Below are positions 3,313-23,219 of a stretch of 64,000 bases of DNA, one piece after another (the stretch's first letter is position 1; every line of letters starts with the position of its first letter). The DNA is from Pirellulales bacterium (lineage in GTDB: Bacteria; Planctomycetota; Planctomycetia; Pirellulales; Thermoguttaceae). The notes below the pieces were generated by a model, which had not been told where the DNA came from, searched no databases, and saw only the letters and a list, made by a program, of their open reading frames with translations. The stretch is from assembly GCA_016935315.1 (NCBI GenBank), contig JAFGRD010000149.1:1-64000 (forward strand). The letters run 5' to 3'. Position numbers and translations under genes: made by a program.

Positions 3313-6300
3313 ATGAGAAAGCTGTGTACAGGAACTCTGGTGCTGGGCTTGCTGCTGATGCTTGGCGGCCCGGCCCTGGCCGCGCTGGTGGGAACACCGA
3401 TTGGGACCACCAACGGCACACTGCTCGACAACGGGGATGGCACCTACACCATCAGCGAAGCCGGCGGCCACGATCTGTGGGGAAACGCCGACACCTTCTT
3501 CTTTGCCTATGAAGACGGCACCGGCGGAGAATGGGCCGGCAGCGGTGATGGCGCGCTGATCGCCCAGGTGACCAACAATGTCAGCGGCGGCGAGTGGTCG
3601 CGAATCGGCGTGATGTTCCGGGAGTCGCTCAACGCGGACAGCCGCCATTTCACGGCGGGGCTGGGCGACATCAGCAATGGTAGGGGTATTAACACCCATC
3701 GCACCGACACGGCGGGCGGCACGGAACGCGATGTCGACCTCAATGACCTCGGCTATACCGACGTCTGGCTGAAGGCGGAGCGCATCGGCAACAGCTTCAC
3801 GGCGTACAACAGCGCCGACGGCGTCACCTGGACGCAGATGGGTAGCACGAACGACCTCGCGTTCGCCAGCAGCGACGCCTTCGTCGGTTTCTTCGCCCAC
3901 GGCCGAAACGACAGCTCCTTTACCACGGCCACGTATGCCAACGTGCAACTGCTTCCAATTCTCGACTACACTTGGGACGACACCAATAACGATTGGGGCA
4001 GCGACCACTGGGGAATGGCCGGCGATTATCCGGCCGGCGATTATTCCCGGGCGATCGTCAACGGCGGGGTTGTCACGGTGGAAGCCGCGCACAGCGCGCG
4101 GAGTCTGACGATCGGCGCCGACGGCACGGTCAGTGTCGGTGCCGGCAACAGCCTCAGCCTCAACCCTGACTCGCTGAGTTCCGAGGGTACGCTGAACCTC
4201 GGATCCGGGGCGACCCTCTCGGCGTCCGGCAACGCCGCTTTGGTGACCGCGGAGGGAATGGCGACTGTGAACGTGCCCGGCACGTTGGTGGTCACTGACT
4301 ACGCCTACACCGGCGCGGCCGACGGCCAACTCGTCAAGACGGGCGACGGGACCCTGGTCATCGCCAACATGAACGCCGTCGCTCCGGCCGCCAAAGGCAT
4401 GCAGGGCATGAAGATCGAGGCGGGCGAAGTGGTCCGATACGGCACGGATCCGCTCGGCGGAGCCAGCACGCTCGAATTGGCCGGTGGCACGCTTACCGCG
4501 TACAGCCTCAGAACGGCCACCAACACCGGTTCGGTGAATCGGTTGACGGAGTCCTTCTACAGCGGCACCTACAATGATGCACAAATCTTTCCGATCGACG
4601 CGGGCCAAGGATACTTGGTTGCCAAGACGCCCGTGCTGACGCGCCTGCTCGGCGAGGGGCTCGACACGGCAACCGGTCTTCCCAATGGCGTCACGGAGAG
4701 CGTGGATCTGAACTTCGTCCAGGACACCTACTCGGTGCGCTCCAACGCCACGATTGGCGGGACCGACGGCGACGCACCCGACTATTACGGCGTGGCCTAT
4801 TCCGGCACGATCACGATTGAAGACCCGGACGTGACGGGATTCGAGTCGGTTCTGCAGCCGGGCATGTACTCCTTCGCCACCAACAGTGACGACGGCAGCT
4901 CGCTCTATATCGGCGGCCAGTTGGTCGTCAACAACGGCGGCTTTCACGGCGGCCAGTGGCGCTACGGAAGCGTCTACCTCGGCCCCGGTAGCTACGACTT
5001 CAAAGTCGGCATGTACGAGGGCGGCGGCGGCGACCAACTGCTGGTGAAGTTCGCTCCGGGGGTGGTCACCGACGAGACCCAGATGCAGTTCATCAACCCC
5101 GCCAAGTCCGACTACACGCAGTATCAGGCGTGGAACTCGGCGGGCACGATTGACGCCGGCAGCGGGATGATCGACATGAGTGGTGCCACCGTGGAAGTGA
5201 CCAACGGCGGGACGCTCAATCTTCATGACAACAGTGGCGCACCTGCCGAGGTCGGCGAGGTAGTCCTGGGCGTGGGCACGCTCGTCACTATGGGCTCGCC
5301 GATCAACATCGGCACCACGACGTTCGCGGCCGGCGCGACGGAAGTGGGCATCGACCCGCAGAGCGCGACGGACTTCAACTTCGACGGCACCGGCTTCGGC
5401 GGCGTGCTGGTCAAGCAAGGCACCAGCGCTCACACAATGGGCCCCTCGGCCAACATGGGCAACGCATCGTTCGGTGTGGCCGACGGTTCTTTGACGATGG
5501 TAGGGCTGGACTCGTGGGGTGACTCGACGTCGGCCGTGCTGCGTGGCGGCACCATGACGATCGAGAACACCGACGTCGACGTCGTGCCGGGTCTGTCCTT
5601 CGGCACGGTCCCGGGGAACTTGAACTCCACGACGCCGAACCCGGTGAACCTGGCGCTGGATCCGCTCGGCCCGACCTACTCGGAGGTCAACGAGGGTGAG
5701 CCGTACTCCACCACGCCATGGGATTACGACGCGACGCTGATCTACACGGGCGAGATTCAGCTTCCGGGTGGACGCGTCGATTTCACCGAGGACATCGATG
5801 ACGTGGCCTGGCTGGTCATCGACGGCCTGCAGATCCTCAACGACGGCAACTGGGATACCGACACGTTTGGAGCCATTACCCGCGATGCGGGCTGGTACTC
5901 CTTCGAGTTGCGGATGTCCAACGGCGGCGGCGGCGCGGGCATTGCCAGCTCGCCGCACGGCTTTGCCTGGGACCCGACCGGCTCCGGCAGCACGGACCCC
6001 GCGGCTGGCGTCTGGGCACATCCTGAGAATTCGGTTGTCGAGGAAGTGGTCCAGATGGACGTGTTCCGCACGGTGGTTCCCATCGGTCCCACCGTCATGA
6101 CTGCGCATTCGGTCACTGTTGAGAGTTCAGCCACACTCAACGCGGATACGATCACCAACGAGAGTCTCGCGTTGGGTAGCCTGACGTTGATGGACGGCGC
6201 CGTGCTGACCACGACGGGCGCCCCGATCAGCTTCACCACCACGACGATGGCGGGCGCGACGGAAGTCGGCTTCGACCCGCAGACCGCGACGTCCTACAAC

Positions 6301-9300
6301 TTCGACGGCACCGGGTTTACCGGCCGGCTGTTGAAGGAGGGCGGCGCCTCGCACGTCATGGAAGACAGCACGGCCAACATGGACGACGCAGCGATCGGCG
6401 TGGCCGGCGGCTCGTTGACGATGGACGGCCTGGACCCGTGGGGCGGCTCGACGTCGATGTGGCTCCGCGGCGGCACGATGACGATCATGAACAGCCCCGG
6501 CCTTGTGCTGTCGCCCGGCTTGGCGTTTGGCACCCTCGCCGGCAACGTCAACACGACCACGCCCAACTCGGTAAACGAGGGCTTCGATCCGCTCGGTCCG
6601 ACCTACTCGGAAATCAACGAGGGTGAACCTTACCCCAACACGCCGTGGGACTACGATACCACGCTGGTCTACACGGGCGAGATTCAGCTTCCGGGTGGAC
6701 AAGTTGACTTCACCGAGGACATCGACGACAAAGCCTGGCTCGTCGTCGATGGCGAGCAAGTCCTCTTTGACAATGACGGTTGGGATACCGACACCTTCGG
6801 AAGCATCACCCGCGATGCGGGCTGGTACGCCTTCGAGTTGCGGATATCCAACGGCGGCGGTGGCGCGGGCATTGCCAGCTCGCCTCACGGCTTTGCCTGG
6901 GATCCGACCGGTTCCGGCAGTACGGACCCGACGGCTGATGTCTGGGCACATCCCGAGAACTCGGTAGTCGAGGAAGTGGTCCAGATGGACGTGTTCCGCG
7001 TGATGGCGCCGACCGGTCCCACCGACATGACCAGCCACACGGTGACGGTCGACGGTGCGGCCACGCTCCACGCCGATTACACGACCAACACGAGCCTCGC
7101 GTTGGGTGGCCTGAACTTGATGGAAGGCGCCGTGCTGACCACGACGGGCGTGCCCATCAGCTTCACCGGCACGACGGTCGATCCGGCGGCCATGAACGTG
7201 GCGCTCGACCCGCAGACTGCGACCTCCTTCGGCGTAGTCGACGGCAGCGGCGGCACGGCCACGATCGCGAAGGTCGGCAGCGGCGATCTGATTCTGGACG
7301 CGGGGGCGGTCAACGTCAGCACCGCCGCGTTCTCCGCCAATGCGGGCCGGATGATCGTCCGCGAGTTGCCCGCCAAGGCAACCGCCGTGGGCGATGCTGG
7401 CCTGAAGATCAACGGCGGTGAACTGGTGCTCTCCGGCGCCACGACCGACGGCGCAGTCACCTACAGCAACACGCTGGAGGGACTTGCCAACGGGACGTTG
7501 ACCGCCGGAGCCGGCGGCAACGGCACCACCGGCGTGGCCGTGACTCTGGGAGGCCCCGTGACGCTTACCAGCGGCACCGTGGCCATGCGTTCCCAGGACG
7601 GCTACACGCTGACGGTCGGCGACGTGGCCGGCCCGGGCGGCATGAGCGTTGCCGAGGGTGACGTGACCCTGGGCGGCAGTTCGGACATCGGTTCGCTGAC
7701 CCTAAGCGGTGGCATGCTCAGCGCCGTAAGCGACATCAACGTCGCCAACGCGTTGGTCACCGGCGGCCAGTTGGGCCTGGGCGGCAATCAGCTCGTTGTC
7801 AGCGACACTCTCAACGTCGGCTCGGCGAGCTACTCGATCAGCGCCGGCAACACGATTGCCGCGGAAGGCACGGACCTGCCCAGCGCGATGGATCTTACCG
7901 TTGCCGGCGGCATTGTGACGTTGTCGTCCACCACCGGTGGCGGCGGCATCCAACTGGAGGGTATCAATATCGACGCCGGGCTGGTGGGCTCGTACACCTA
8001 CGATGCCAACACCGGCGAGCACGCCGTGGTCGGTGGCGGGGCCGATATCTGGGGCGGTTCCGACCAGTTCTACTTCGCCCAGACGGCCGTGGGAACGGAT
8101 CCGATCAGCCTGCTGGCCCACGTGGAGAGCATCGCGCTGGAGCCGGGCTACGACGGCCTCAACGGCTGGGCCAAGGCGGGCGTAATGGTCCGCGACAAGC
8201 TGGTGGGCAACTCGGTGCACGTCAGCACCGCGGATACCCCCGAGAACGGCGTTGCCGCCCAAGGCCGCTCCGCGGAGGGCGACAACAACTACAACATCGG
8301 CAGCAGCACCGTTGCGTTCGCCGCGGCCTGGTTGCGGGTCGATTTCGACCCGGCCACCAACACGGCGACGCACTACCGCTCTGCTGACGCCGGCACGACC
8401 GAAGTCGGCGCGATTAACTGGGAGCAGTTTCACCAGCAAGTCGTGAGTCCGACCGCCGGCACCGAGTTCTACGTCGGTCTGTCGGTCACCTCCCACGACA
8501 CGGCCGATCTGGTCAGGGCCGTGTATACCAACCTGTATCTCAACGACACGGAGGTCGGGCCGTTCTCATCCGTGGAGTTGGTCGAATTGGGGACCAACAT
8601 CGTGGTGGCCGCCGACACGGAGTTGGTGCCCGCCACGGGCGTGACCGCGGCGAAGGTCGGTAACCTGACGCTGCTTGAGGGCGTTGACACGCTCACGCTC
8701 AGCGGCATGACCTACGAGGTCGGCGATCTGACGACCCCGGCGGAGTCGACCATTGTCGGCAACCTGAACGTGCGTGGGACCGTCAACGTCGGCGGCAGCC
8801 CGGGCACGCTGCACCTGACCGACACGTTCGAGTTCCTCGATAGCGCGGTGTACCACTGCGAGATCGGCAACGCGGACGTCGGACCGGCCAACGACCTGAT
8901 CAGCAGCATGGCCGACGTAAACCTGGCCGGCGCGCTGAGCCTGACGGCCGTGGCCAAGCTGCACAGCCCGGTGCCGCACCCGACGCAGCCGAGTATCATG
9001 AGGGAGTGGTACGGCTTCGAGACTCGGACGATTATCAGCACGGATGCCGATCCCAGCGGCGAAGCCTCCGTCTTGTGGGACTTCGCCTCGGTTCCGGACG
9101 CAGGTAGCCACCTGGGTTACGGTGTGTTCCTCCAGGGCGTCAACCTGGAGCCGACGGCCGTGACGCTCGACCTGCTGCAGGCCGCCCCGGGCGACACCGA
9201 CGGTGACCTCTACGTCAACGGCATCGACATCCAGAACATCCTCGCGGCCAACAAGTTCGGCCTGGACGAGGATGCCGACTGGATGCAGGGTGATATGACA

Positions 9301-9810
9301 GGCGACCAGCGCGTCAACGGGCTCGACATCCAGGCGATCCTGTCGGCCAACCTCTTCGGCCTGCAAACGCCCTACGCCGCGACGGATCCCGGTGAGTTGG
9401 GCGAGGGCGCCGTGGACCTGGTGGTGGTTCCGGGCGAGGGTGTCTATTTGGACACCAAGGGGACGACCATCAACAGCTACGTGCTGACCTCGCAGGCAGG
9501 CGTGTTCACCGGGGAACCGGCCGACAACCTCGGACTGTTCACCGAAGACACGGACGATTGCGTCAGCGGCAGCTTTGCGTTCGCGCTCAATGGCGAGCAT
9601 TTCCTGGGCAACATCCTGGGTTCCTCGGCGACCGGCAGCAAGGCCGACCTGCTGGAGGACTTGTACATGACGTACACGATCGACGGGATGAATGGCACCT
9701 ACGAGGCGAAGCTGATCATCGTGCCCGAGCCGGGGACGCTGATCCTGCTGGCCAGCGGCCTGGCCGGTCTGTTGGTGCTGGCGATCCGTCGTCGGCGCCG
9801 CAAGGCGTAG
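3313..9810 (+). CDS. Giant PEP-CTERM surface protein with PA14-like and dockerin-like modules
   Basis: The product has 2165 residues and the start is fixed by AGGAGA. The signal peptide is MRKLCTGTLVLGLLLMLG followed by a GPALA-type cleavage site. In order: a concanavalin-like beta-sandwich (about 40-217); autotransporter-like Gly/Thr-rich beta strands; a PA14-like domain (about 473-583); two near-identical 309-residue repeats, each with a PA14-like core (EDIDDVAWLVIDG); more beta strands; and a second concanavalin-like domain (about 1550-1745). A dockerin-like pair follows (about 1960-2016, with NGIDIQNILAANKFG), then a module of about 105 residues shared with two neighbours. The PEP-CTERM tail starts at Pro2138: VPEPGTLILL, a hydrophobic helix, then IRRRRRKA. 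Proteins with this tail are normally processed by an exosortase and sent to the outer surface; no exosortase lies in the window. A carbohydrate-binding or adhesive role is inferred. Confidence 0.9.
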   Translation: MRKLCTGTLVLGLLLMLGGPALAALVGTPIGTTNGTLLDNGDGTYTISEAGGHDLWGNADTFFFAYEDGTGGEWAGSGDGALIAQVTNNVSGGEWSRIGVMFRESLNADSRHFTAGLGDISNGRGINTHRTDTAGGTERDVDLNDLGYTDVWLKAERIGNSFTAYNSADGVTWTQMGSTNDLAFASSDAFVGFFAHGRNDSSFTTATYANVQLLPILDYTWDDTNNDWGSDHWGMAGDYPAGDYSRAIVNGGVVTVEAAHSARSLTIGADGTVSVGAGNSLSLNPDSLSSEGTLNLGSGATLSASGNAALVTAEGMATVNVPGTLVVTDYAYTGAADGQLVKTGDGTLVIANMNAVAPAAKGMQGMKIEAGEVVRYGTDPLGGASTLELAGGTLTAYSLRTATNTGSVNRLTESFYSGTYNDAQIFPIDAGQGYLVAKTPVLTRLLGEGLDTATGLPNGVTESVDLNFVQDTYSVRSNATIGGTDGDAPDYYGVAYSGTITIEDPDVTGFESVLQPGMYSFATNSDDGSSLYIGGQLVVNNGGFHGGQWRYGSVYLGPGSYDFKVGMYEGGGGDQLLVKFAPGVVTDETQMQFINPAKSDYTQYQAWNSAGTIDAGSGMIDMSGATVEVTNGGTLNLHDNSGAPAEVGEVVLGVGTLVTMGSPINIGTTTFAAGATEVGIDPQSATDFNFDGTGFGGVLVKQGTSAHTMGPSANMGNASFGVADGSLTMVGLDSWGDSTSAVLRGGTMTIENTDVDVVPGLSFGTVPGNLNSTTPNPVNLALDPLGPTYSEVNEGEPYSTTPWDYDATLIYTGEIQLPGGRVDFTEDIDDVAWLVIDGLQILNDGNWDTDTFGAITRDAGWYSFELRMSNGGGGAGIASSPHGFAWDPTGSGSTDPAAGVWAHPENSVVEEVVQMDVFRTVVPIGPTVMTAHSVTVESSATLNADTITNESLALGSLTLMDGAVLTTTGAPISFTTTTMAGATEVGFDPQTATSYNFDGTGFTGRLLKEGGASHVMEDSTANMDDAAIGVAGGSLTMDGLDPWGGSTSMWLRGGTMTIMNSPGLVLSPGLAFGTLAGNVNTTTPNSVNEGFDPLGPTYSEINEGEPYPNTPWDYDTTLVYTGEIQLPGGQVDFTEDIDDKAWLVVDGEQVLFDNDGWDTDTFGSITRDAGWYAFELRISNGGGGAGIASSPHGFAWDPTGSGSTDPTADVWAHPENSVVEEVVQMDVFRVMAPTGPTDMTSHTVTVDGAATLHADYTTNTSLALGGLNLMEGAVLTTTGVPISFTGTTVDPAAMNVALDPQTATSFGVVDGSGGTATIAKVGSGDLILDAGAVNVSTAAFSANAGRMIVRELPAKATAVGDAGLKINGGELVLSGATTDGAVTYSNTLEGLANGTLTAGAGGNGTTGVAVTLGGPVTLTSGTVAMRSQDGYTLTVGDVAGPGGMSVAEGDVTLGGSSDIGSLTLSGGMLSAVSDINVANALVTGGQLGLGGNQLVVSDTLNVGSASYSISAGNTIAAEGTDLPSAMDLTVAGGIVTLSSTTGGGGIQLEGINIDAGLVGSYTYDANTGEHAVVGGGADIWGGSDQFYFAQTAVGTDPISLLAHVESIALEPGYDGLNGWAKAGVMVRDKLVGNSVHVSTADTPENGVAAQGRSAEGDNNYNIGSSTVAFAAAWLRVDFDPATNTATHYRSADAGTTEVGAINWEQFHQQVVSPTAGTEFYVGLSVTSHDTADLVRAVYTNLYLNDTEVGPFSSVELVELGTNIVVAADTELVPATGVTAAKVGNLTLLEGVDTLTLSGMTYEVGDLTTPAESTIVGNLNVRGTVNVGGSPGTLHLTDTFEFLDSAVYHCEIGNADVGPANDLISSMADVNLAGALSLTAVAKLHSPVPHPTQPSIMREWYGFETRTIISTDADPSGEASVLWDFASVPDAGSHLGYGVFLQGVNLEPTAVTLDLLQAAPGDTDGDLYVNGIDIQNILAANKFGLDEDADWMQGDMTGDQRVNGLDIQAILSANLFGLQTPYAATDPGELGEGAVDLVVVPGEGVYLDTKGTTINSYVLTSQAGVFTGEPADNLGLFTEDTDDCVSGSFAFALNGEHFLGNILGSSATGSKADLLEDLYMTYTIDGMNGTYEAKLIIVPEPGTLILLASGLAGLLVLAIRRRRRKA
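5266..7240 (+). repeat. 927-bp in-frame tandem repeat (two full copies plus a partial third)
   Basis: Copies begin near 5266 and 6193, and a truncated third runs from about 7120 to 7240. The 927-base period (309 codons) is fixed by the shared block at 5751 and 6678. Long stretches are nearly identical at the protein level, for example GWYSFELRMSNGGGGAG against GWYAFELRISNGGGGAG. The high identity points to a recent duplication. Confidence 0.9.
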
Positions 9811-9824
9811 CCCCTGAATGGCAG

Positions 9825-9906
9825 CCGCGGAGGCCGATCCTCCTCGGCGATTGACACTCGCAAGACGACGAAGCGTCGCTCCGGGACCGGAGCGACGCTT
9901 TTTTTT
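9825..9906 (+). terminator. Rho-independent terminator block (copy 2)
   Basis: A perfect 12-bp stem (9871-9882 with 9889-9900), a GGGACC loop and a run of eight T (9899-9906) lie 60 bases past the stop of the giant PEP-CTERM gene. The sequence from 9825 repeats the block found at position 1. Confidence 0.93.
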
Positions 9907-10005
9907 CTGCCACCCTCCTTGATCCGGCTTTCCAAGGAGGGGCGGATCGCAGCAAAGGCGGGCGGCCCGGCGCACAGAAACGGGGAGGATTCTTGGTTCC
10001 TGGAC

Positions 10006-10033
10006 TTGCAATCTGTTCCGAATATGCTATTCT
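10006..10033 (+). promoter_or_regulatory. Extended -10 promoter motif (copy B)
   Basis: TTGCAA (10006-10011), 16 bases, TATTCT (10028-10033), with TGC directly before the -10 and TCCG in the spacer. It matches the motif at 3088-3115 and lies about 650 bases upstream of the next clear gene. Confidence 0.55.
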
Positions 10034-10497
10034 GGATAGATGAGAAGGATATGCAGGAAGCAGCGATTGTGTGTTCTAAGGCAATTGTCCGGGCCGGGCG
10101 GTGGAGGAGATTCCAGCGGTTGTACCGGGAGGTTTTGGCCTGCTCCATGGATATCGGCGTTGCTTCTAGGACTACGGAACGGGGGGTAACGGCCGTGAAT
10201 CTGGGTTTCTTCCAAGGGGATTAGACGTGTCCTGGAATTCAAACGCGACTTCGGAAGCGCCACAGGCGTGCCCGCGACCCACTCTTGCCCTCTGGGCGAG
10301 TCGGGAGCGTCCGGATCGTGGCCAGTTCGCAATTCGCGTTCCGCAGGGCGATTTCTCCCCGCTATCCCCCCCTTTTTTCCTGGCTCCGGAGGATTTTTTG
10401 CCACCGAATCAAAGTCGCAACCCATTGTCCGGAAATGACTTGCGTTGTTTCGGAAAAAAATCTCCCAAGAAAACCCCCGAATCGGCCGTTGAAACGT

Positions 10498-10525
10498 TTG
10501 CATTTTTTCCGGAATCTGGTATTCT
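10498..10525 (+). promoter_or_regulatory. Extended -10 promoter motif (copy C)
   Basis: TTGCAT (10498-10503), 16 bases, TATTCT (10520-10525), TGG directly before the -10 and TCCG in the spacer. It would give a leader of about 155 nt for the PEP-CTERM gene at 10687. Confidence 0.6.
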
Positions 10526-10686
10526 ATCGGATGTAGTGAGTTTCTCGCCTGTATCGGTAATACGGGTGGGGATGGGGAAGTGGAGTCTGAGGCCGCTTCG
10601 CCGCACAGCTTGAGATTGTTTTTCGCCATCGTGGCATACCCGCAAAGGGAGGCAGATTCCCGCCGCAATTTTTAGGAGAGGATGTG

Positions 10687-11505
10687 ATGAACGTGCGAAT
10701 TGTCTTGACAGTCTTCTTTGGTTTGTTGGTTGCCGCCTGTGCACCGGCTTCGGCGGCCATGGTCTTGGGACAAGCTGGCGACAGTGTCCCGGACATGTAC
10801 GTCAATCAGGTTCCGGCCGGCTACGCGGGCCCGGAGACACAAGGGGTTTGGCTCGTTTGGGACGATGTTTTTAGTGCTCCGGGCGCGGGGGGGTCGGAAG
10901 TCGGTTTCTTCCTTCTTCAGTCGGCTGGGGGGCGCTTTAACGGCAGTCCCATCCTGCCGCCGGGTCGTCTTTTCCAGGATAACTCCCCTGGCTTCATCAG
11001 CACGGGTTTCCCCAACATGGCGATCGAGGAACCTTACTACGTGGGCGAGATCTTCGCGGACGCCGACGAAGCGACGCTGCTGGCGGACCTGACGTATTCG
11101 GTGACCATCAACGGCGTCGATGGGGCTTGGTATGGCGACCTGATCATGGGCGGCCCCGTTGAGGGCACTCCCCCGACGTTCACCAACCTGCCGACCGGCG
11201 TGATCGACCTCGGCAACTACGGTACGGACGTCTACGATCTCGACGCGACCGAGCCGGACGGCGACCAGATGACGTTCAGCTTGACCAGCGGACCGGCCGG
11301 CGTGGAAATCGATGCCATGACCGGCGTGGTCACTTGGCCTGGTGTTCACACGCCCGATGGATTGTACGACATCGGCGTGATGGTTTCGGACAAGGACGGC
11401 TCGGACACCGGTTCGATCTCGGTATGGGTTCCGGAGCCCAGCACGCTGGCCATGCTGATCACCGCCAGCTTGCTCGGTCTGGTCATGTGGCGGCGCCGCC
11501 GCTAG
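10687..11505 (+). CDS. PEP-CTERM protein with shared module and Ig-like domain
   Basis: The product has 272 residues. The ATG at 10687 is preferred over the GTG at 10684 because of its distance from AGGAGAG (10674-10680). A signal peptide (MNVRIVLTVFFGLLVAA, cleavage near ASAA) leads into a domain of about 110 residues homologous to the module found before the PEP-CTERM tails of the genes at 3313 and 11816. An Ig-like domain of the He_PIG kind follows (about 162-247, with DATEPDGDQMTFSL and MTGVVTW). The sorting tail is VPEPSTLAML (Pro249) with a hydrophobic helix and a terminal WRRRR. There are no dockerin-like repeats. It is probably exported and processed by an exosortase. Its function is unknown. 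A strong terminator follows. Confidence 0.88.
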   Translation: MNVRIVLTVFFGLLVAACAPASAAMVLGQAGDSVPDMYVNQVPAGYAGPETQGVWLVWDDVFSAPGAGGSEVGFFLLQSAGGRFNGSPILPPGRLFQDNSPGFISTGFPNMAIEEPYYVGEIFADADEATLLADLTYSVTINGVDGAWYGDLIMGGPVEGTPPTFTNLPTGVIDLGNYGTDVYDLDATEPDGDQMTFSLTSGPAGVEIDAMTGVVTWPGVHTPDGLYDIGVMVSDKDGSDTGSISVWVPEPSTLAMLITASLLGLVMWRRRR

Positions 11506-11562
11506 GCAACCAAGGGTGGTTTCTGCCCAGTAGAGATTCAGAGCGATAGGCGAAGGCAATAG

Positions 11563-11598
11563 ACACACGGCGGCCGTTTCGGTCGTCGTGTGTTTTTC
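11563..11598 (+). terminator. Rho-independent terminator
   Basis: A 13-bp stem with two G-U pairs (11563-11575 with 11581-11593), loop GTTTC, then a T run to 11597. It lies about 60 bases past the stop of the PEP-CTERM gene at 10687. Confidence 0.92.
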
Positions 11599-11605
11599 TT
11601 GGGGC

Positions 11606-11700
11606 ATGTCGTTTTACGCGGCGGAGCCGAGTGCTTTGGCCATGCTGCTCAGCGGCGGCGTCCTGGTGGGTGGCTGCGCCGGCGGAGGGGCCGGCGGTAG
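11606..11700 (+). pseudogene. Frameshifted remnant of a PEP-CTERM sorting tail
   Basis: From the ATG at 11606 one frame reads MSFYAAEPSALAMLLSGG and ends in a hydrophobic Gly/Val stretch. From 11671 another frame reads WLRRRRGRR and stops at 11700. Joined by a single frameshift near 11665-11671, this gives a full PEP-CTERM signal: EPS-type motif, hydrophobic helix, arginine cluster, stop. It resembles the tail of the gene at 10687 (EPSTLAML, WRRRR). No matching upstream body is present, because a terminator lies at 11563-11598. It is best explained as the broken 3' end of a duplicated gene. A random match is possible but unlikely. Confidence 0.65.
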
Positions 11701-11729
11701 CCCACCCAAGCAAAAGCCATGAAAAATCG

Positions 11730-11758
11730 TTGCCCCGGCTGGGGGTGTCATGTAAAAT
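11730..11758 (+). promoter_or_regulatory. Probable promoter of the peptidase-like gene
   Basis: TTGCCC (11730-11735), 17 bases, TAAAAT (11753-11758), preceded by TG. It lies about 60 bases before the ATG at 11816 and just after the pseudogene fragment. It resembles the TTGCAW motif of the neighbours but has a one-base-longer spacer. Confidence 0.5.
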
Positions 11759-11815
11759 GGAGGCTGGGCGAGGCGCGTGGCGTTCTGCGCATTCTGTGGG
11801 AAGAGGATCCGGCGT

Positions 11816-13312
11816 ATGGTCTGGCGTCGCGAGTTGGCGAGACAAACGGTGCGACTGGCGATCTGCGTGGCGGTTGCCCTGGTGTGTGCCCGCGGCCAGG
11901 CCGGCTTGACGATCCGCTTCGATTATACCTACGACGGCAACGGGCTGTTCGATGATCCGGCGCGGCGGGAGCTGCTCGAGGTGAGCGCCGGTCTGGTCAA
12001 TCGTTTCATCGACGATTTGGATGCGATCGTTCCGTCTTCTTCCGATCACTGGTCCTATTACGTCCCTCGTCCAGACGATCCGAACTTCGCGTTCGTGGAC
12101 GACGACACGATACCGGCCGATACGGTGAAGATCTACGTGGGCGGTCGCGACCTTTCGGCGAACTATCTTGCCCTGGCCTCCTTGGCGAGCACCTGGCTGG
12201 TCGACGGCTCGGACGATTGGGAGAATACGATCGCGTATCGTGGCGAGATTGGGGCGGATGCCGATCCGGCGACCGACTACGCGTTCTATGCGGGCAGCAT
12301 CACGTTCAACACGGTCCGCAACTGGCACTTCAGCAGAACGACGGACGGTTTGGACGAGACGACGGTCGATTTTCTCACGGTGGCGACGCACGAGCTGCTG
12401 CATCTTCTGGGGTTTGGGCCGGCCGAGTCTTGGAATGCGCACATCGCCGACGGCCGCTTTGCGGGGCCGGAGGCGATGGCCGTCGGCAGCAGCAACAACC
12501 CGGATCTTGTGCTCGACTCGGTCCGTGCCCACTGGGCCGCCGACACGCTGAGCGCCGTGGGGGAGGCATCGCAGGAGGCGCTGCTGACTCCGTACATCAG
12601 GCGTGGTGAGCGGCGTTTGCCCACGGCTTTGGACCGGGCCGGATTGCGCGACATCGGTTGGCAAGAGGCGCCGGCCGGCGATGCGAACCTGGATCGAGCG
12701 ATCAACGGCATCGACATTCAGGCCATCTTGGCGGCCAACCTCTTCGGCAAAGACAAGGAGCAGCTTGTTGCGCAGCAAGCCTGGCCCGCACTCTGGGCGA
12801 CGGGTGACTTCACGGGTGACGGAGTGGTCAACGGCATTGATATTCAGGCGATCCTGGAGACGAACCTCTTCGGAACCGGACCCTATGCCAGCACAACCCC
12901 GGAGGAGGGCGCTGCGCAGGTGGTCGAGTTGATGGTCGGGCCACAGGGGTTGAGCATCGACACCGGCGGCGCAACCGTCAACGGCTATGTCCTGGCGTCG
13001 TCGTCGGGGGTCTTCCGTGGCCAGCCGGCCGACAACCTGGGATTGTTTCAGGAAGACACCGATTGCCGTATCAGCGGCAATCTGGGCTTTGCTCTCGACG
13101 GTGTTTGGCGACTGGGCAACGTGATCGGAGAAGATGTCGGAGACGTCGATTTCTTCAGCGACCTTGCGCTTTCATATACGCTGGTCGGCCGGCCCGGTGT
13201 CTATGCTGCCCGCATTGTCGCGGTCCCCGAGCCGTGCACCTTGCTGATGCTGGCCGGCGGCGTCTGGGGGCTTCTGCTTGCGTTTGCGGCTGGCAGACGA
13301 CGAGCCAGGTGA
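11816..13312 (+). CDS. Zinc-peptidase-like PEP-CTERM protein with dockerin-like pair
   Basis: The product has 498 residues. The ATG at 11816 has AGAGGA eight bases upstream; an in-frame GTG at 11777 has none. A signal peptide ending near ARGQA is followed by a domain with HELLHLLGFG (His192, Glu193, His196, Gly199), a zinc-peptidase signature related to metzincins. The usual third histidine position (202) is Pro, so the third ligand must come from elsewhere or be absent. A dockerin-like pair covers about 288-354 (two NGIDIQAIL segments). Then come the shared module of about 105 residues and a tail of VPEPCTLLML (Pro471), hydrophobic helix and GRRRAR. It is predicted to be secreted and processed by an exosortase. 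It may cut or mature neighbouring surface proteins, which is inference. A hairpin and the convergent leuD follow. Confidence 0.87.
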   Translation: MVWRRELARQTVRLAICVAVALVCARGQAGLTIRFDYTYDGNGLFDDPARRELLEVSAGLVNRFIDDLDAIVPSSSDHWSYYVPRPDDPNFAFVDDDTIPADTVKIYVGGRDLSANYLALASLASTWLVDGSDDWENTIAYRGEIGADADPATDYAFYAGSITFNTVRNWHFSRTTDGLDETTVDFLTVATHELLHLLGFGPAESWNAHIADGRFAGPEAMAVGSSNNPDLVLDSVRAHWAADTLSAVGEASQEALLTPYIRRGERRLPTALDRAGLRDIGWQEAPAGDANLDRAINGIDIQAILAANLFGKDKEQLVAQQAWPALWATGDFTGDGVVNGIDIQAILETNLFGTGPYASTTPEEGAAQVVELMVGPQGLSIDTGGATVNGYVLASSSGVFRGQPADNLGLFQEDTDCRISGNLGFALDGVWRLGNVIGEDVGDVDFFSDLALSYTLVGRPGVYAARIVAVPEPCTLLMLAGGVWGLLLAFAAGRRRAR

Positions 13313-16215: not shown

Positions 16216-16430
16216 GACGGCTGCATGGTTGATTTGGGATTCCTGCTATCGTGTCTGATTTCGGTCGCAGATCGTGGTTGGGTCCAGACAAACCACCAGG
16301 CTGTTGCAGATGCACGTCCGAGACACGAACAGGAAACGTTACGCCTTCCGGTTGCCGGGTGACGATACTGATTGTAGGGAAAGTAGAGATTAGGCAGGTT
16401 TTTCCGGGACGGGGGTTGAGAGAACGCTCG

Positions 16431-19400
16431 ATGTTGCGATGTCGTCGCCTGTGTCTGGAATTGCTGGAAGACCGTCGGCTGCTGGCGCTGTTGCCACTGG
16501 GCACGGAAATCCACCTCGGTGAGTCGTGGTCCGGGAGACAGACCACGTTCCCACAGAACCCTGCCGCAGAGGTGGCCGGAGACGCGTCTGGGAATCTCGC
16601 TGTGGTCTGGGGCGCCGATGGCCGGGACGGTGACGACTGGGGAGTCTATGCCCAACGATTCGATGCGACCGGCGCACGAATGGGCAGTGAGTTTCGGGTC
16701 AACACAACCATCGCTTCGGCGCAGACGTTTCCCAGTGTTGCGATGGACGATCCCGGCAACTTCGTTGTCACCTGGTCCAGCCTGTCGCAGGACTTCAGCG
16801 GCTACGGGGTCTTCGCCAAGAGGTTCGATTCGGCGGGGCAGCCCGTGGGCGGTGAGTTTCGGGTGAACACGTTTACCGCCGGAAACCAGAACTTCTCGGC
16901 CGTGGCGATGGATGCCGACGGCGACTTCGTGGTGACTTGGACCAGCCAGGGCCAGGACGGTAGCGGTACGGGGATCTTTGCCCGGCGATACGACGCTTCA
17001 GGAACGGCCGGCGGCGGCGAATTCCCGGTCAACGTTACCACGGAGGGTAACCAACGCTACTCATCGGTGGCCTGCGACGCGGTGGGTGGTTTTGTGGTCA
17101 CGTGGACCGGCGAGGACGAAAGCGGCAGCGGTGTTTTCGCGCGGAGGTTTGCTCCCGATGGAACCCCAATCACCGACGAGTTTCTGGTGAACACAACCAC
17201 CGAGAGCACGCAGCAATTCTCGTCGGTGGCTGTCAATCCGGGCGGCAACTTCGTCGTCGCCTGGCAGGGATACGACTTGGAGCGTAACACCTGGAACATC
17301 TACGCCCAGCGTTTCGATCCGGTCGGAGGTGCCCTGGGAGAGGAAACGCTGATTGCGGAGGGCCGATTTCCGGGAGTAACCATCGGCCGCAATGCCGACT
17401 TCGTTCTGGTCTGGGAGACCTATGACCCGCAAGACGCTGAGCCGTCCGCGATCTACGCCCAGCACTACGACGCGCTGGGAGGGGCCCTGAGCGAGCCGCT
17501 CTGGGCACACAGCCAATCGGGCTATGACCAGGAAAGTCCGTCGGTGGGCATGACCGACGATCGCCTGGTGTTTCTCTGGACGAGCATGGGGCCGGACCAC
17601 CCCGAGGTCCACGCGCAGCCTTGCGAAGTGACGGCTCCCGATGTAATGAATCATCCGCCGACGATTGCACCGCTCGATGACCAGACGGTGGCGGAGGGAA
17701 GTACGCTGCTTTTGGTCGCCACCGCCCTTGATACTGACGATCCCCCCGACGGACTCACGTTCAGCCTGGACGGCAACGTTCCGGAAGGCGCCCTCATGGA
17801 CCCGGCGAGCGGCGTGCTTACGTGGACTCCCAGCGAGCGGCAGGGGCCGGGCACCTATCGGATCGGCGTGCGCGTGACCGACGACGGCAGCCCGCCGCTG
17901 AGCGACTTGACGTTCTTTTCGGTCCGCGTTGACGAAGTCCATCAATCGCCGCTGATCGATCAGGTCGCGGACCAGACAGTCGCCGAGGGCCAGAAGTTGT
18001 TGCTGGCGATAACCGTAACCGATCCGGACGTTCCTTCTGGCCAATTCACGTTTGGCTTCGAGACAGACGTGCCGGACGGGGCGGAGATCGATCCCGGCAC
18101 GGGAGTGTTCACCTGGATACCGACCGAAGAGCAGGGGCCCGGTGTCTATCCGATCACGATCACGGTGGACGATGGGACCTCGGCGCAAGGCGACACGATG
18201 CGGTTTGTAGTTGTTGTCGAGGAAGCCAACCAGCCACCGGTCCTGGCGGAGATTGCCGATCAAGCGGTCGATCGGGGCCGAACGCTCTCGTTGACCGCCG
18301 TGGCCACCGACGCGGATCGTCCGGCCAACGGGCTGACGTTCGGCCTGGGTGCCGACGCGCCACCGGGGGCCTCGATCGACCCGATCAGCGGCTTGTTCAC
18401 GTGGACGCCGTCGCCGTTTCTGGAACTTGGCAGCTACGACGCCACCGTGCTGGTATTCGACGACGGCATGCCGTCTTACAGCGATTCGGTCACATTCTCC
18501 ATTCTGGCCGAACCTTCGATGCTCGAGGAAATCGACGACTTTTCGGTGGATGAGGAGCAGCCCCTTTCTTTCACGGCCATCGCGACGCCGCCGTACGATC
18601 CGGCCACCAACGGGTTGAGTTTCAGTCTCGACCCGGGGGCGCCCGCGGGCGCTGTCATTGACCCCGCGACAGGCGTGTTCACCTGGACGCCGACCGAACA
18701 ACAGGGGCCGAAGGCGCACTGGCTCACGGTTCGACTGACCGACGACACACAGCCGGAACTGAGCGACCGCGAGACCTTCAAGATCGTGGTCAACGAAGTC
18801 AACCGGCCACCTGTTTTGGGAGTAGCGGAAGACCGGACGATTGCCGAAGAGACGCAGTGGTCGTGGACGGTCCCCGTGACCGATCCCGATGTCCCGGCCA
18901 ACGTGCTGAGCTTTCGCGTCGAGCCTGGAGCACCCGAGGGACTTCGGATCAACCCGAAGACGGGGAAAGTCACCTGGACGCCGACGGAAGAACAGGGCCC
19001 CGGTGTCTACGACGTCACCATTGTCGTCAACGACAACGGCTTACCGGCATTCGAGGAGACGATTTCTTTCTCGGTCACGGTCGTCGAAGTCAATCGGTCC
19101 CCGGGGTTGGAACCGATCGTCGACCAGTACGTCGAGTTGGGACAGACGCTCTCGCTTGTCGCGGTCGCGACCGATGGAGACTCTCCCCTGAACGCGCTGA
19201 CCTTCAGTCTCGACAGCGGCGCGCCCGAGACGGCCACGATCCATCCCGCCAGCGGACAGTTCACCTGGACGCCGAGCGAAGCGGCGCCGAACAGCTACGA
19301 CGTGACGATTCGCGTGACCGACGACGGCACACCACCGGCAAGCGATACGGTATCGTTCACGATCCGCATGGAGTCTTCCATCCTCGATCCGATAGATGAC

Positions 19401-22400
19401 CTGACGGTGAACGAAGGGCAGACCATCTCGCTGACGGCGATGACCGCGGCCGGATACGATCCGGTCGGCGATCTGCACTTCAGTCTCGATTCCGATGCAC
19501 CCGACGGCGCAGCCATCGATCCGCTTGCCGGCACGTTCACTTGGACGCCGAGCGAGGAGCAAGGGCCCGGCACGTATCGGATCATCGTGCGATTGATCGA
19601 CGACGGCAGTCCGGAACTCAGCGACAGCGAGTCGTTCGTGATTCGCGTTGTCGAGGTCAACGAGGCCCCCATGTTGGGCGCCGTCGACGATCTGACCATC
19701 GATGAAGAATCGGCCATCTCGCTGACGCTCCTGGCTACCGACCCGGACGTTCCGGAGAATGGATTGACGTTCGGTTTCGCCACCGACGCGCCGGATCCGC
19801 CGGACGGCGCGGAGATCGATCCGAAGACCGGTGAGTTCACCTGGACGCCGACGGAGGCGCAGGGACCGGGCGTGTACCCGATTGGAGTCGGGGTGGTCGA
19901 CGACGCCACGCCGCCGCTTCGTCACACCTTGGAGTTCTCCGTTATCGTCGCCGAGGTCAATCGAGCCCCGGTGCTGGAAGGAATCGACGACCAGGTTCTC
20001 GATCGGGGAGAAACGCTCCGGTTGATCGCCGTGGCGACCGATCCGGACCTTCCGGCCGATGGATTGACCTTCACGCTCGACGCCGGCGCCCCCGCCGAGG
20101 CAACGATCGATCCGATCACGGGCGAGTTGGTTTGGACCCCGGCGCCCGATCAGCCACCGGGCACGTACGACGTGACGATCCGCGCCGTCGACGACGGCAC
20201 GCCACCGCTGAGCGCCACGGCCTCGTTCTCAATCAGCGTCGAGCCCGCCATGCTCGGCACAATCGACAATCGCTTCGTTGCCGAGGGATTGACGCTGCAA
20301 CTGCTTGCCGCCACCACCGCTCCCTACGGTCCGGGAGAGGGGCTCACGTTCAGCCTCGACCCGGGTGCGCCGGCCGGAGCAGCCATCGATCCGGTCACCG
20401 GTGTGTTCGTCTGGACGCCGTCCGAGGAGCAGGGGCCCGGGACGTATCACGTGACCGTGCGACTAACCGACGATGCCCACCCGTGGCTCAGCGACTGCGA
20501 GACGTTCTCGATCACGGTTGCAGAGGTCAACCAGGCTCCCGTGCTGGAGACAATCGGTCCTCAGACCGTCGACCGAGGGCGGACGTTGCTGCTGCCGGTG
20601 GTCGTCACGGATGCGGACCTTCCGGCGAACGGGCTCACCTTCAGCCTGGACTCGGGCGCTCCGGCCGGCGCCACAATCGACGCGGAGACCGGACTGTTCG
20701 CCTGGACGGCTGCCGACGACCAGGAACTGCGAACCTATGAAAACGTGACGATTCGCGTCACGGACGACGGGGCGCCGATTTGCAGCAGCACCACGTCGTT
20801 TTCGGTGACCGTCGAGCCCGCGATGCTCGAGGCCATCGACGACCGTACTGTCAAGGAATGCAGGACGCTCTCGTTGTGGGCGACGGCCACTGAGCCCTAC
20901 GATCCGGCCACCGGGCTGACCTTCCATCTCGATCCCGGGGCGCCGGCCGGGGCCATGATCGACCCGGCCACGGGCCGGTTCACCTGGACACCATCCGAGG
21001 AGCAAGGTCCCGCGGCATACCGTGTCGTCGTCCGGCTGACCGATGACCATGACCCGTCGTTTTCCGACAGCGAGGCCTTCACGATCACGGTCGTCGAGGT
21101 AAATGGGGCTCCGAGGGTAAGTCCGATCGACGACCAGACGGTCCGCGAACAGATGGCGCTCACGCTGACAGCCGTTGCGACCGACGAAGACCTTCCCCCA
21201 AACGAGTTGGTTTTCAGCCTTGCCCCGGAGGCACCGGCCGGGGCGACGATCCATCCGGCTACTGGGGTGTTCACCTGGATTCCGACCGAACAGCAGGGGC
21301 CCGGAACGTACACGATTACGGTGCGAACGACCGATAGCGGAACACCTCTGCTGGGCGATGCGACTTCGTTCTCCGTAACCGTCGAGGAGGCCAACCGGGC
21401 GCCGGTACTCCAGGAACTCGCCGACCAGACGGTCGACCTGGGCGGAACGCTGGCTTTGACTCCGATGGTTGCCGATCCGGATTGGCCTGCCAACGGGCTG
21501 ACGTTCAGTCTTGATTCGAGTGTTGGCGACGAAGCCGCGGTGGACCCGGCCACGGGACGGTTTACGTGGACGCCCGCTCCGGATCAGACGCCCGGCACCT
21601 ACTCGTTTGTCCTTTGGGTCACCGATGACGGGACGCCGCCGATGAGCGACGCGACATCCTTTTCCGTCACGGTGGAATCTCCGATGCTGGAGGCGTTCGG
21701 CGCTCAAACCGTCGACGAACAGCAGGAGCTTTCCTTGTTTGCCGTGGCCACGGCTCCGCACGACCCGGCCGACGGATTGACCTTCAGCCTGGATCCCGGG
21801 GCGCCGGCCGGGGCCGTGATCGACCCGACAACCGGTCACCTCACCTGGACGCCCGGCGAAGCGCACGGCCCCGGAACGTATCATCTCGTGGTCCGATTGA
21901 CCAACGATCATGATCCGACGCAAAGCGACAGCGAATCGCTCTTCGTGACGGTCGCCGAGGTCAACAGGCCGCCCGTGCTCGACCCAATCGACGACCAGAC
22001 GATCGCCGCGGGCGGCACCCTTGTGTTGGACGTTACGGCCGATGATCCGGATGTTCCGGCGAACGTGTTGACCTTCAGCCTCGGCGCGGGCTGCCCCGGC
22101 GGGGCCACCATCGACGCCGCCACGGGTCGGTTTACATGGACCCCGACCGCGGGCCAGGCGTTGGCGACCTACCCGGTGACAGTCCGTGTGAGCGACGGAG
22201 GGGCACTGGATGATTCGTCCGTCTTTGCGGTCACGGTGACCGAGGCGGCTGAAGCCCAAGAGCTGACCTGGGACGGACTTGGAGATGGCCAATGGGGCGA
22301 CACGCACGAGGTGACCGGATTCTCACATTGGGTCGACACGGACGGCGCTCCCGTGTGCCTGTTGCCTGGGCCGCTCACCAACGTGACGATCGACACGAAC

Positions 22401-23219
22401 ACGGTAGGCGTAGCAAACGACTGCGTAGCCGGAAGTCTCACGGTTCGGGGCGGTGGACTATCCATTGCCGCCGGCCATACCCTTGCCGTTGCCAACGACG
22501 TGCGTTTCGCTACCGGTACCAGCCTGCGACTGGGAGTCGGTGCCCGACTTGTCGTTGGCGGTGATCTCTGGGTTGAGGCAGGTGCTGAGTACGTGTGCGA
22601 GTTGAGCAGTTCGGCCAACGGCTCGATCGTCTGCAGCGGCTGCGCCCATCTGGATTACGGCAGCAGGCTCGTCTTGCAGGCGAACGGCGGTCTGGGCGTA
22701 TTTGGCTACAAGACTCGAACGATCATGGAACTTCAAGACGGGTGCGTCATTTCAGGGAGCTTCACGAACGCGCCGATCCCGCGCGATCACCTGGGGCATG
22801 GCGTGTTCGCAAGAGATTTCACTTACAGCGAGACGTTGCGGGTCGCCGTCCTGCAGGCGGGAGACGGTGACGCAGACGGCGACGGCATGGTCAACGGCAA
22901 CGACATTCAGAGAATCCTGGCGGCCAACAAGTTTGGAACCCTCAAACCGGGCGATTGGACCGAAGGCGATTTTACGGGCGACGGCTTCATCAACGGCAAG
23001 GACATTCAGGCGATCCTGGCGGCCAACCTCTTTGGCCAAGGGCCCTACGCCGAGACGCCTTCCCCTGCCGGCGGAAGCAGCAAGCTTGGCGCGACGACCG
23101 CGATTTTGTGGAGTGTTGAGCCTTGGCTTGAGACAAGGCGTTCCCGCCGCGATGCCAAGCGGCAGGACGCGGCGTCGATCGTTGACCTGCTGATGCGTCA
23201 CGCGGACTGGTGCGACTGA
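16431..23219 (+). CDS. Giant LEPR surface protein with 16 Ig-like repeats and a dockerin-like pair
   Basis: The product has 2262 residues. The ATG at 16431 is chosen because it starts MLRCRRLCLELLEDRRLLA, the planctomycete N-terminal motif seen in large exported proteins; the frame is open from 16251 but that part is not protein-like. Residues about 35-400 hold six to seven repeats such as VFAKRFDSAGQPVGGEF and FVVTWTS, suggesting a beta-propeller. Sixteen Ig-like (He_PIG, cadherin-like) repeats of about 96 residues cover about 407-1944, with recurring TFSLD and ATGxFTWTP signatures and acidic residues that could bind calcium. A beta-rich stretch and a dockerin-like pair follow (about 2145-2202, NGNDIQRIL and NGKDIQAIL). 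There is no PEP-CTERM tail. It is probably a long cell-surface stalk or adhesin. The convergent membrane-protein gene ends 16 bases beyond. Confidence 0.87.
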   Translation: MLRCRRLCLELLEDRRLLALLPLGTEIHLGESWSGRQTTFPQNPAAEVAGDASGNLAVVWGADGRDGDDWGVYAQRFDATGARMGSEFRVNTTIASAQTFPSVAMDDPGNFVVTWSSLSQDFSGYGVFAKRFDSAGQPVGGEFRVNTFTAGNQNFSAVAMDADGDFVVTWTSQGQDGSGTGIFARRYDASGTAGGGEFPVNVTTEGNQRYSSVACDAVGGFVVTWTGEDESGSGVFARRFAPDGTPITDEFLVNTTTESTQQFSSVAVNPGGNFVVAWQGYDLERNTWNIYAQRFDPVGGALGEETLIAEGRFPGVTIGRNADFVLVWETYDPQDAEPSAIYAQHYDALGGALSEPLWAHSQSGYDQESPSVGMTDDRLVFLWTSMGPDHPEVHAQPCEVTAPDVMNHPPTIAPLDDQTVAEGSTLLLVATALDTDDPPDGLTFSLDGNVPEGALMDPASGVLTWTPSERQGPGTYRIGVRVTDDGSPPLSDLTFFSVRVDEVHQSPLIDQVADQTVAEGQKLLLAITVTDPDVPSGQFTFGFETDVPDGAEIDPGTGVFTWIPTEEQGPGVYPITITVDDGTSAQGDTMRFVVVVEEANQPPVLAEIADQAVDRGRTLSLTAVATDADRPANGLTFGLGADAPPGASIDPISGLFTWTPSPFLELGSYDATVLVFDDGMPSYSDSVTFSILAEPSMLEEIDDFSVDEEQPLSFTAIATPPYDPATNGLSFSLDPGAPAGAVIDPATGVFTWTPTEQQGPKAHWLTVRLTDDTQPELSDRETFKIVVNEVNRPPVLGVAEDRTIAEETQWSWTVPVTDPDVPANVLSFRVEPGAPEGLRINPKTGKVTWTPTEEQGPGVYDVTIVVNDNGLPAFEETISFSVTVVEVNRSPGLEPIVDQYVELGQTLSLVAVATDGDSPLNALTFSLDSGAPETATIHPASGQFTWTPSEAAPNSYDVTIRVTDDGTPPASDTVSFTIRMESSILDPIDDLTVNEGQTISLTAMTAAGYDPVGDLHFSLDSDAPDGAAIDPLAGTFTWTPSEEQGPGTYRIIVRLIDDGSPELSDSESFVIRVVEVNEAPMLGAVDDLTIDEESAISLTLLATDPDVPENGLTFGFATDAPDPPDGAEIDPKTGEFTWTPTEAQGPGVYPIGVGVVDDATPPLRHTLEFSVIVAEVNRAPVLEGIDDQVLDRGETLRLIAVATDPDLPADGLTFTLDAGAPAEATIDPITGELVWTPAPDQPPGTYDVTIRAVDDGTPPLSATASFSISVEPAMLGTIDNRFVAEGLTLQLLAATTAPYGPGEGLTFSLDPGAPAGAAIDPVTGVFVWTPSEEQGPGTYHVTVRLTDDAHPWLSDCETFSITVAEVNQAPVLETIGPQTVDRGRTLLLPVVVTDADLPANGLTFSLDSGAPAGATIDAETGLFAWTAADDQELRTYENVTIRVTDDGAPICSSTTSFSVTVEPAMLEAIDDRTVKECRTLSLWATATEPYDPATGLTFHLDPGAPAGAMIDPATGRFTWTPSEEQGPAAYRVVVRLTDDHDPSFSDSEAFTITVVEVNGAPRVSPIDDQTVREQMALTLTAVATDEDLPPNELVFSLAPEAPAGATIHPATGVFTWIPTEQQGPGTYTITVRTTDSGTPLLGDATSFSVTVEEANRAPVLQELADQTVDLGGTLALTPMVADPDWPANGLTFSLDSSVGDEAAVDPATGRFTWTPAPDQTPGTYSFVLWVTDDGTPPMSDATSFSVTVESPMLEAFGAQTVDEQQELSLFAVATAPHDPADGLTFSLDPGAPAGAVIDPTTGHLTWTPGEAHGPGTYHLVVRLTNDHDPTQSDSESLFVTVAEVNRPPVLDPIDDQTIAAGGTLVLDVTADDPDVPANVLTFSLGAGCPGGATIDAATGRFTWTPTAGQALATYPVTVRVSDGGALDDSSVFAVTVTEAAEAQELTWDGLGDGQWGDTHEVTGFSHWVDTDGAPVCLLPGPLTNVTIDTNTVGVANDCVAGSLTVRGGGLSIAAGHTLAVANDVRFATGTSLRLGVGARLVVGGDLWVEAGAEYVCELSSSANGSIVCSGCAHLDYGSRLVLQANGGLGVFGYKTRTIMELQDGCVISGSFTNAPIPRDHLGHGVFARDFTYSETLRVAVLQAGDGDADGDGMVNGNDIQRILAANKFGTLKPGDWTEGDFTGDGFINGKDIQAILAANLFGQGPYAETPSPAGGSSKLGATTAILWSVEPWLETRRSRRDAKRQDAASIVDLLMRHADWCD
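17649..22256 (+). repeat. Sixteen tandem Ig-like repeats with a three-repeat super-unit
   Basis: Repeats of about 96 codons begin with an N-x-P-P/A-V-L type motif or with an E-P/S-x-M-L motif. The second type occurs at repeats 4, 7, 10, 12 and 15, and the one before it is usually the DRG type. This gives the pattern (2,3,4)(5,6,7)(8,9,10)(11,12)(13,14,15), as expected if a three-repeat block was duplicated and one member was later lost. Confidence 0.85.

What the first reader, a model, noticed from the sequence alone, without database searches (positions are those of the whole stretch)
9411..13225. Shared module of about 105-115 residues placed before PEP-CTERM tails in three proteins
The segment occurs at 9411-9720, about 10780-11150 and about 12920-13225. 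Common features are a strand with S/G-Y/F-V/L-L, x-G-x-F-x-G-x-P, then GLFxEDT-like, G-N/E-I/V, D-L-x-x-x-Y-T/S-x-x-G-x-x-G-x-Y, ending just before the VPEP motif or, in the second protein, before an Ig-like domain. It keeps company with dockerin-like repeats in two of three cases. I do not recognise it as a named domain. A cohesin-like or sorting-aid role would be testable.
Basis: partly seen in the sequence, partly recalled or inferred. Interest (0 to 1): 0.72.

Follow-up and report, generated by a model that had tools for sequence, protein, structure and literature searches.

The report
Unnamed surface domain beside exosortase tails
Three neighbouring surface proteins of a planctomycete carry the same roughly 100-residue domain, which no domain library names; this bacterium has at least 16 copies and a distant relative 26, nearly always just in front of the tail that anchors the protein to the cell surface.

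Summary
The three segments (about 9394-9720, 10780-11148, 12905-13222) belong to one homologous domain of about 100 residues that Pfam and NCBIfam do not name. The host genome has 15 close copies plus the divergent second-protein copy. They sit in otherwise unrelated proteins (papain, subtilisin, metalloprotease, lectin, LTD adhesin); 13 of the 15 have the order dockerin - module - PEP-CTERM. One copy is inserted in a loop of another domain, and an orthologue of the third protein has dockerin and PEP tail without the module, so it is a mobile, optional unit. A distant Planctomycetota genome (MB_PLM_2) has 26 copies, all directly before a PEP-CTERM-like tail: two separate expansions at the same site. 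AlphaFold2 gives a beta-sandwich for both the first and the second protein (pLDDT 82, 83). In both, the nearest solved folds are a GH20 N-terminal domain, cohesins and CBM2, but only at Z of 7.7 or less, and profile comparison shows no sequence homology to cohesins. A sorting-aid role is not supported. Most likely it is an anchor-proximal display domain that becomes the C-terminal domain after exosortase processing; what it binds is unknown. A dockerin-related role (cohesin-like or X-module-like) remains possible.

The parts
3313..9810 (+). Protein 1 (2165 aa): signal peptide, PA14-like match, long repetitive region, dockerin pair, module, PEP-CTERM tail
9190..9372 (+). Dockerin pair of the DIQ type in protein 1
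   Evidence: 119 bits; alignment
9394..9720 (+). Module, copy 1 (HMM limits 9403-9717)
9721..9795 (+). PEP-CTERM tail of protein 1
   Evidence: 29.8 bits, over cut-off
10684..11505 (+). Protein 2 (273 aa): signal peptide, divergent module, He_PIG Ig-like domain, PEP-CTERM; no dockerin
10780..11148 (+). Module, copy 2 (divergent; branches outside the genome's 15-copy clade)
11428..11499 (+). PEP-CTERM tail of protein 2
11777..13312 (+). Protein 3 (511 aa): HELLHLLGFG metalloprotease domain (partial NF038122/M10 match), dockerin pair, module, VPEP tail (below Pfam cut-off)
12677..12886 (+). Dockerin pair of the DIQ type in protein 3
   Evidence: 107.9 bits
12905..13222 (+). Module, copy 3 (HMM limits 12920-13219), directly before the VPEP tail
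22866..23048 (+). DIQ-type dockerin at the end of the neighbouring giant LEDRRLL adhesin (16251-23219), a counter-example with no module and no PEP tail

Best explanation
The segment is one copy of a mobile, independently folding beta-sandwich domain of about 100 residues found on exported planctomycete proteins. It nearly always sits between the functional part of the protein (in this genome usually ending in a dockerin pair) and the exosortase-recognised PEP-CTERM tail. Shown here: common ancestry of the copies; sharp domain borders; occurrence in unrelated proteins; insertion into another domain; presence or absence in an orthologous pair; two expansions in distant genomes at the same site. 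Inferred: after Sec export and exosortase processing at the PEP motif the module becomes the C-terminal, anchor-proximal domain. There it would hold the dockerin or enzyme off the envelope or exopolysaccharide and present it, and its own surface may touch a matrix partner. It is an accessory display domain, not the sorting signal.
For: Position: 13 of 15 close copies here lie directly before a PEP-type tail, and 26 of 26 in MB_PLM_2 with the PEP motif 105-110 residues after the module start (24 exact PEP, 2 near variants). Autonomy: in C120 and C112b similarity to most other copies is confined to about -10 to +104; in C120 the module interrupts the RHVFYN...DDxAIAPDKxALLPG domain that is uninterrupted in L060, L061 and C112b. 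Optional: the G184 orthologue of protein 3 (41% over 333 aa, E=1.5e-70) has dockerin then VPEP with no module. Ancestry: own copies versus distant planctomycete copies 98.9% hhalign probability over 105 columns; 15-copy clade support 0.955. Fold: beta-sandwich predicted from two divergent members. Exosortases are present.
Against: Small G120 proteins such as the 166 aa L083 frame consist of little more than signal peptide, module and PEP tail, where a spacer would have nothing to space, so a binding role of its own is likely there. In some relatives the module is N-terminal or precedes the dockerin (L025, L041, L067, L020). No experiment bears on anchoring, and exosortase chemistry in planctomycetes is assumed from other bacteria.
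Confidence: 0.45

Rival explanations
1. Dockerin partner: the module works with the adjacent dockerin, either as an X-module-like stabiliser of a dockerin dyad or as a reduced cohesin-like receptor, in a planctomycete cohesin-dockerin complex.
For: 13 of 18 DIQ-type dockerins in the genome are followed by the module after 6-14 residues. Dockerin and module distances correlate across 13 paralogues (Mantel r=0.42, p=0.003), upstream region not, although module and tail correlate equally. Cohesins fill much of both fold lists (best Z 7.3 and 5.8). X-modules are about 98-residue beta-sandwiches that stabilise dockerins (PMC5141474, PMC7456326). A planctomycete cohesin-dockerin protease complex has been proposed (PMC6461901).
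Against: Several relatives carry the module without a dockerin (protein 2; G120 small proteins). G022, the MB_PLM_2 genome, has no Dockerin_1 match though dockerin-like pairs occur in some of its proteins; G065 has 82 dockerin matches and no module was found there. X-modules precede their dockerin, here the module follows. No sequence homology to cohesins. 5 of 18 DIQ dockerins lack it.
Confidence: 0.22
2. Glycan or exopolysaccharide-binding module: a CBM-like sandwich that holds exosortase-processed proteins in the extracellular matrix.
For: PEP-CTERM genes are linked with exopolysaccharide (PMC1569441). Minimal SP-module-PEP proteins suggest an own binding role.
Against: No conserved Trp column and only two invariant Tyr, both in strands, in the 15 close copies. 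Z values do not separate kinship from a common arrangement.
Confidence: 0.22
3. Sorting aid: part of the exosortase recognition or processing signal.
For: Fixed place next to the PEP motif in two lineages.
Against: Most PEP-CTERM proteins of the same genome lack it. Two LEERxLL proteins carry it without a PEP tail. The G184 orthologue has the tail alone.
Confidence: 0.06

Closest known systems
Cohesin domain (PF00963; cohesins of cellulosomes)
   Same: Predicted beta-sandwich; cohesins are among the nearest solved folds for both models (Z up to 7.3 and 5.8, about 95-110 residues aligned at rmsd 3.1-4.3); occurs with dockerins
   Different: About 100 instead of about 140 residues; no Pfam match; hhalign probability 0.3% against 20 planctomycete cohesins; usually C-terminal to a dockerin in the same chain
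X-module of cellulosomal X-dockerin dyads
   Same: About 100-residue beta-sandwich coupled to a dockerin by a short linker in 13 of 15 copies
   Different: Lies after, not before, the dockerin; found without dockerin in other proteins and genomes; dyad interface untested
N-terminal domain of Vibrio harveyi GH20 N-acetylglucosaminidase and CBM2
   Same: Top fold match (Z 7.7 and 7.2) and further matches of CBM2
   Different: No sequence similarity detected; no conserved Trp
PEP-CTERM sorting tail (PF07589 / TIGR02595)
   Same: Immediate C-terminal neighbour; both show lineage-specific expansions
   Different: The module is a separate domain of about 100 residues; present in a minority of PEP-CTERM proteins and sometimes without the tail

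Membership tests
Cohesin (PF00963) | Match to the Pfam cohesin profile | tested here: not met
   no cohesin match on the module in full proteins or in 21 module sequences at E 0.05
Cohesin (PF00963) | Sequence homology by profile-profile comparison | tested here: not met
   hhalign probability 0.3%, 8 columns, though no positive control for cohesin sensitivity was run
Cohesin (PF00963) | Cohesin jelly-roll fold | tested here: inconclusive
   Z 7.3 and 5.8 to best cohesins, all rows under 8
Cohesin (PF00963) | Calcium-dependent binding of dockerin | not testable with these tools
   needs binding assay or complex structure
X-module of X-dockerin dyads | Beta-sandwich of about 100 residues next to a dockerin | tested here: met
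   13 of 15 close copies follow a DIQ dockerin by 6-14 residues; fold
X-module of X-dockerin dyads | Module N-terminal to the dockerin | tested here: not met
   module is C-terminal to the dockerin in all 13
X-module of X-dockerin dyads | Intimate hydrophobic interface with the dockerin | not testable with these tools
   no complex or dyad structure was made
PEP-CTERM proteins (host proteins) | Signal peptide, PEP motif, hydrophobic stretch, basic end; exosortase in the genome | tested here: met
   three exosortase loci; signal peptides read by eye only
Carbohydrate-binding module (CBM2-like) | Conserved exposed aromatic binding platform | tested here: inconclusive
   no conserved Trp column; Tyr29 and Tyr94 invariant, exposure not computed

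The most novel reading that the evidence does not exclude
The module is a reduced, sequence-unrecognisable cohesin equivalent: an exosortase-anchored dockerin receptor. Proteins made only of signal peptide, module and PEP tail would be anchoring scaffoldins, and dockerin-module-tail proteins adaptors, of an extracellular protease-rich assembly in planctomycetes.
Probability: 0.1. Interest if true: 0.82.

Novelty: new variant of a known kind. Interest (0 to 1): 0.52.

Why it matters
Most PEP-CTERM proteins are unannotated beyond the tail. A domain with clear borders, at least 16 and 26 copies in two genomes, and an orthologous pair with and without it, gives a handle on how exosortase-anchored proteins are displayed and on whether planctomycetes run a dockerin-based extracellular assembly with far more dockerins (86 matches here) than recognised cohesins (one over cut-off, one weak).

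Tried and rejected
Known-family match: Pfam, NCBIfam and PDB sequence searches gave nothing meaningful. Chance similarity for protein 2: rejected by shuffles. Cohesin membership: rejected at sequence level. In that script the He_PIG control failed (0 repeats extracted), so its last rows repeat an earlier result and are not used. Cadherin-like hits in L074, L075 and similar loci were discarded as false positives on reading; L022 was left out as doubtful. A first scan of genome contigs with the tight alignment found nothing; a second with MB_PLM_2 sequences found 26 loci, all of that genome. The Fisher value used a rough count of 27; the corrected table is (p=5e-7). Genome censuses are lower bounds, because only 12-16 first-look candidates per genome were scored. 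The first Foldseek search had no match under E=0.01. No structure was predicted for copy 3 on its own.

Full report
WHAT WAS CHECKED. The window is contig C30 of a 7.1 Mb, 172-contig genome. Kinship searches place it with planctomycete relatives: the named relative found is a Planctomycetota MAG, and LExRxLL N-terminal motifs, which I know from planctomycete surface proteins, are present. The three ORFs are 3313-9810, 10684-11505 and 11777-13312. Pfam sees only PA14, He_PIG, weak matrixin and dockerin, and PEP-CTERM; nothing lies on the segments. NCBIfam gives a partial NF038122 metalloprotease match on protein 3 and tail models.

THE MODULE IS REAL AND MULTI-COPY. A search of the genome with segment 1 gave 15 full copies at 48-100% identity, two copies cut by contig starts, and segment 2 at E=4.5e-4. 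The 15 align over about 103 positions with 17 invariant residues; the consensus core is INGYVLTSxxGVFTGEPAxNLGLFQEDTDxRISGxFAF and xLGxVIG...DLxxTYTIxGxxG. Segment 2 scores 36.8 bits against a 30-sequence HMM that excludes it, while 5000 shuffles reach 8.1 bits. More distant members were found in other genomes of the order and phylum: G057, G184, G020, G096, G120, G082, G087, G022, G041, G013, G407 and G535. hhalign of the 15 against 15 distant members gives 98.9% over 105 columns, E=4e-17. None of 21 representatives matches Pfam or NCBIfam meaningfully.

DISTRIBUTION. No other genome of the same family that was searched has a match. The 15 copies form one clade (support 0.955) with segment 2 outside it, so segment 2 is an older, separate copy. 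MB_PLM_2 has 26 copies, grouped together with weak support of 0.42. Two lineages therefore appear to have expanded the module separately.

ARCHITECTURE. The 15 copies sit in proteins with papain, subtilisin, M10/M12-like protease, L-type lectin, PA14 or LTD/cadherin regions. Thirteen have the order DIQ-type dockerin, 6-14 residue linker, module, PEP-like tail; in some the tail is below the Pfam cut-off and was read by eye. All-against-all BLASTP shows nested borders: many pairs share a pre-dockerin stretch as well, protein 3 shares only from the dockerin onward, and C120 and C112b share essentially the module alone. In C120 the module interrupts a domain of the form RHVFYNxSxFDG...DDxAIAPDKxALLPGxTATFANYTSYxRGINGxMVD; L060, L061 and C112b show that domain uninterrupted. 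C120 and C112b begin with LEERTLL / LEERQLL and lack PEP tails.

OPTIONALITY AND A CONSERVED NEIGHBOURHOOD. In G184, on contig C208, two genes with modules and PEP tails are followed directly by an orthologue of protein 3 (41% over 333 aa, E=1.5e-70) that has the dockerin and a VPEP tail but no module. The same gene order (large module protein, protein with a near N-terminal module, metalloprotease) occurs in the window. This natural with/without pair argues that the module is needed neither for the tail nor for the dockerin. Also in this genome, 13 of 18 DIQ dockerins are followed by the module, three DIQ-dockerin proteins with PEP or PEP-like tails lack it, and two DIQ-dockerin proteins with the LExR motif lack it. 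Among PEP-CTERM matches, excluding two contig-edge fragments, the association of module with DIQ dockerin is strong (8/1/1/33, p=5e-7), but the counts are paralogues and not independent.

POSITION IN THE SECOND LINEAGE. In MB_PLM_2 all 26 copies are at the C-terminal end with the PEP motif (24) or a one-letter variant (2) 105-110 residues after the module start. G022 has no Dockerin_1 match, though dockerin-like pairs were read in some of its proteins. G065, of the same family as the window's genome, has 82 dockerin matches and no module found. The steadier neighbour across lineages is therefore the tail, not the dockerin. In G120 a 166 aa frame (L083) is essentially signal peptide, module and tail.

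STRUCTURE. AlphaFold2 on the 15-copy alignment: pLDDT 81.8, pTM 0.76, eight strands and short helices; two of the five models were poor (43 and 36), so confidence is moderate. On segment 2 with 20 sequences: pLDDT 82.8, pTM 0.78, five consistent models. Foldseek gave no significant PDB match. VIA-align ranks the GH20 N-terminal domain of Vibrio harveyi first for both (Z 7.7, 3.3 A, 99 residues; Z 7.2, 3.8 A, 106 residues), then cohesins (6kgf_C 7.3, 2vo8 7.3; 2vo8 5.8) and CBM2 (6.3; 5.3). From general knowledge cohesins, CBM2 and chitobiase N-terminal domains are grouped in one structural superfamily; this is a lead only. All Z are under 8. The profile test against 20 planctomycete cohesins is negative. 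No Trp column is conserved.

INTERPRETATION. Shown: a homologous, mobile, optional domain placed beside exosortase tails, expanded twice, with a beta-sandwich prediction. Inferred: after export and tail processing it is the anchor-proximal end domain and presents the rest of the protein. The genome has 86 dockerin matches at E 0.1, one cohesin over the cut-off plus one weak, and three exosortase loci, so a dockerin receptor could be missing from annotation; that keeps the cohesin-equivalent reading alive at low probability. A planctomycete cohesin-dockerin protease complex has been proposed (PMC6461901), and X-modules next to dockerins are known to stabilise them (PMC5141474, PMC7456326). The module resembles the latter in size and neighbourhood but not in order or in constancy of association. 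PEP-CTERM proteins are known to expand within lineages and to be poorly annotated (PMC1569441); literature searches found no paper describing this module, within an open-licence library only.

Noticed in passing
L055 (C120), L057 (C112b), L060, L061: A second recurring domain (RHVFYNxSxFDG...ALLPGxTATFANYTSYxRGINGxMVD) followed by a NATDMLLARNN-type dockerin; Pfam did not match it in C120 or C112b. In C120 the module is inserted in its loop.
   Followed up: partly
window 16251-23219: Giant adhesin with an LEDRRLL N-terminal motif and 16 He_PIG repeats, ending in a DIQ-type dockerin that lacks both module and PEP tail.
   Followed up: partly
genome G000, C164 and C8: Open frames of 12,346 and 10,025 aa carrying dockerins; the first has a weak cohesin match and on reading holds more than one cohesin-like stretch (L061).
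   Followed up: no
genome G000: Two dockerin classes: N-G-x-D-I-Q (18 copies, mostly PEP-tail proteins) and N-A-T-D-M-L-L (read in LExRxLL proteins), which suggests two docking specificities.
   Followed up: partly
L178 3408-4856 and window 11777-13312: Orthologous HELLHLxGFG metalloproteases next to module genes in two families of the order: a conserved three-gene neighbourhood.
   Followed up: partly
window about 5300-7100: Protein 1 contains near-duplicate stretches of roughly 300 residues (TDPxAxVWAHPENSVVEEVVQMDVFR occurs twice), an internal duplication.
   Followed up: no
G065 (same family): 82 Dockerin_1 matches in a genome where no module was found: dockerin expansion without the module.
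   Followed up: no
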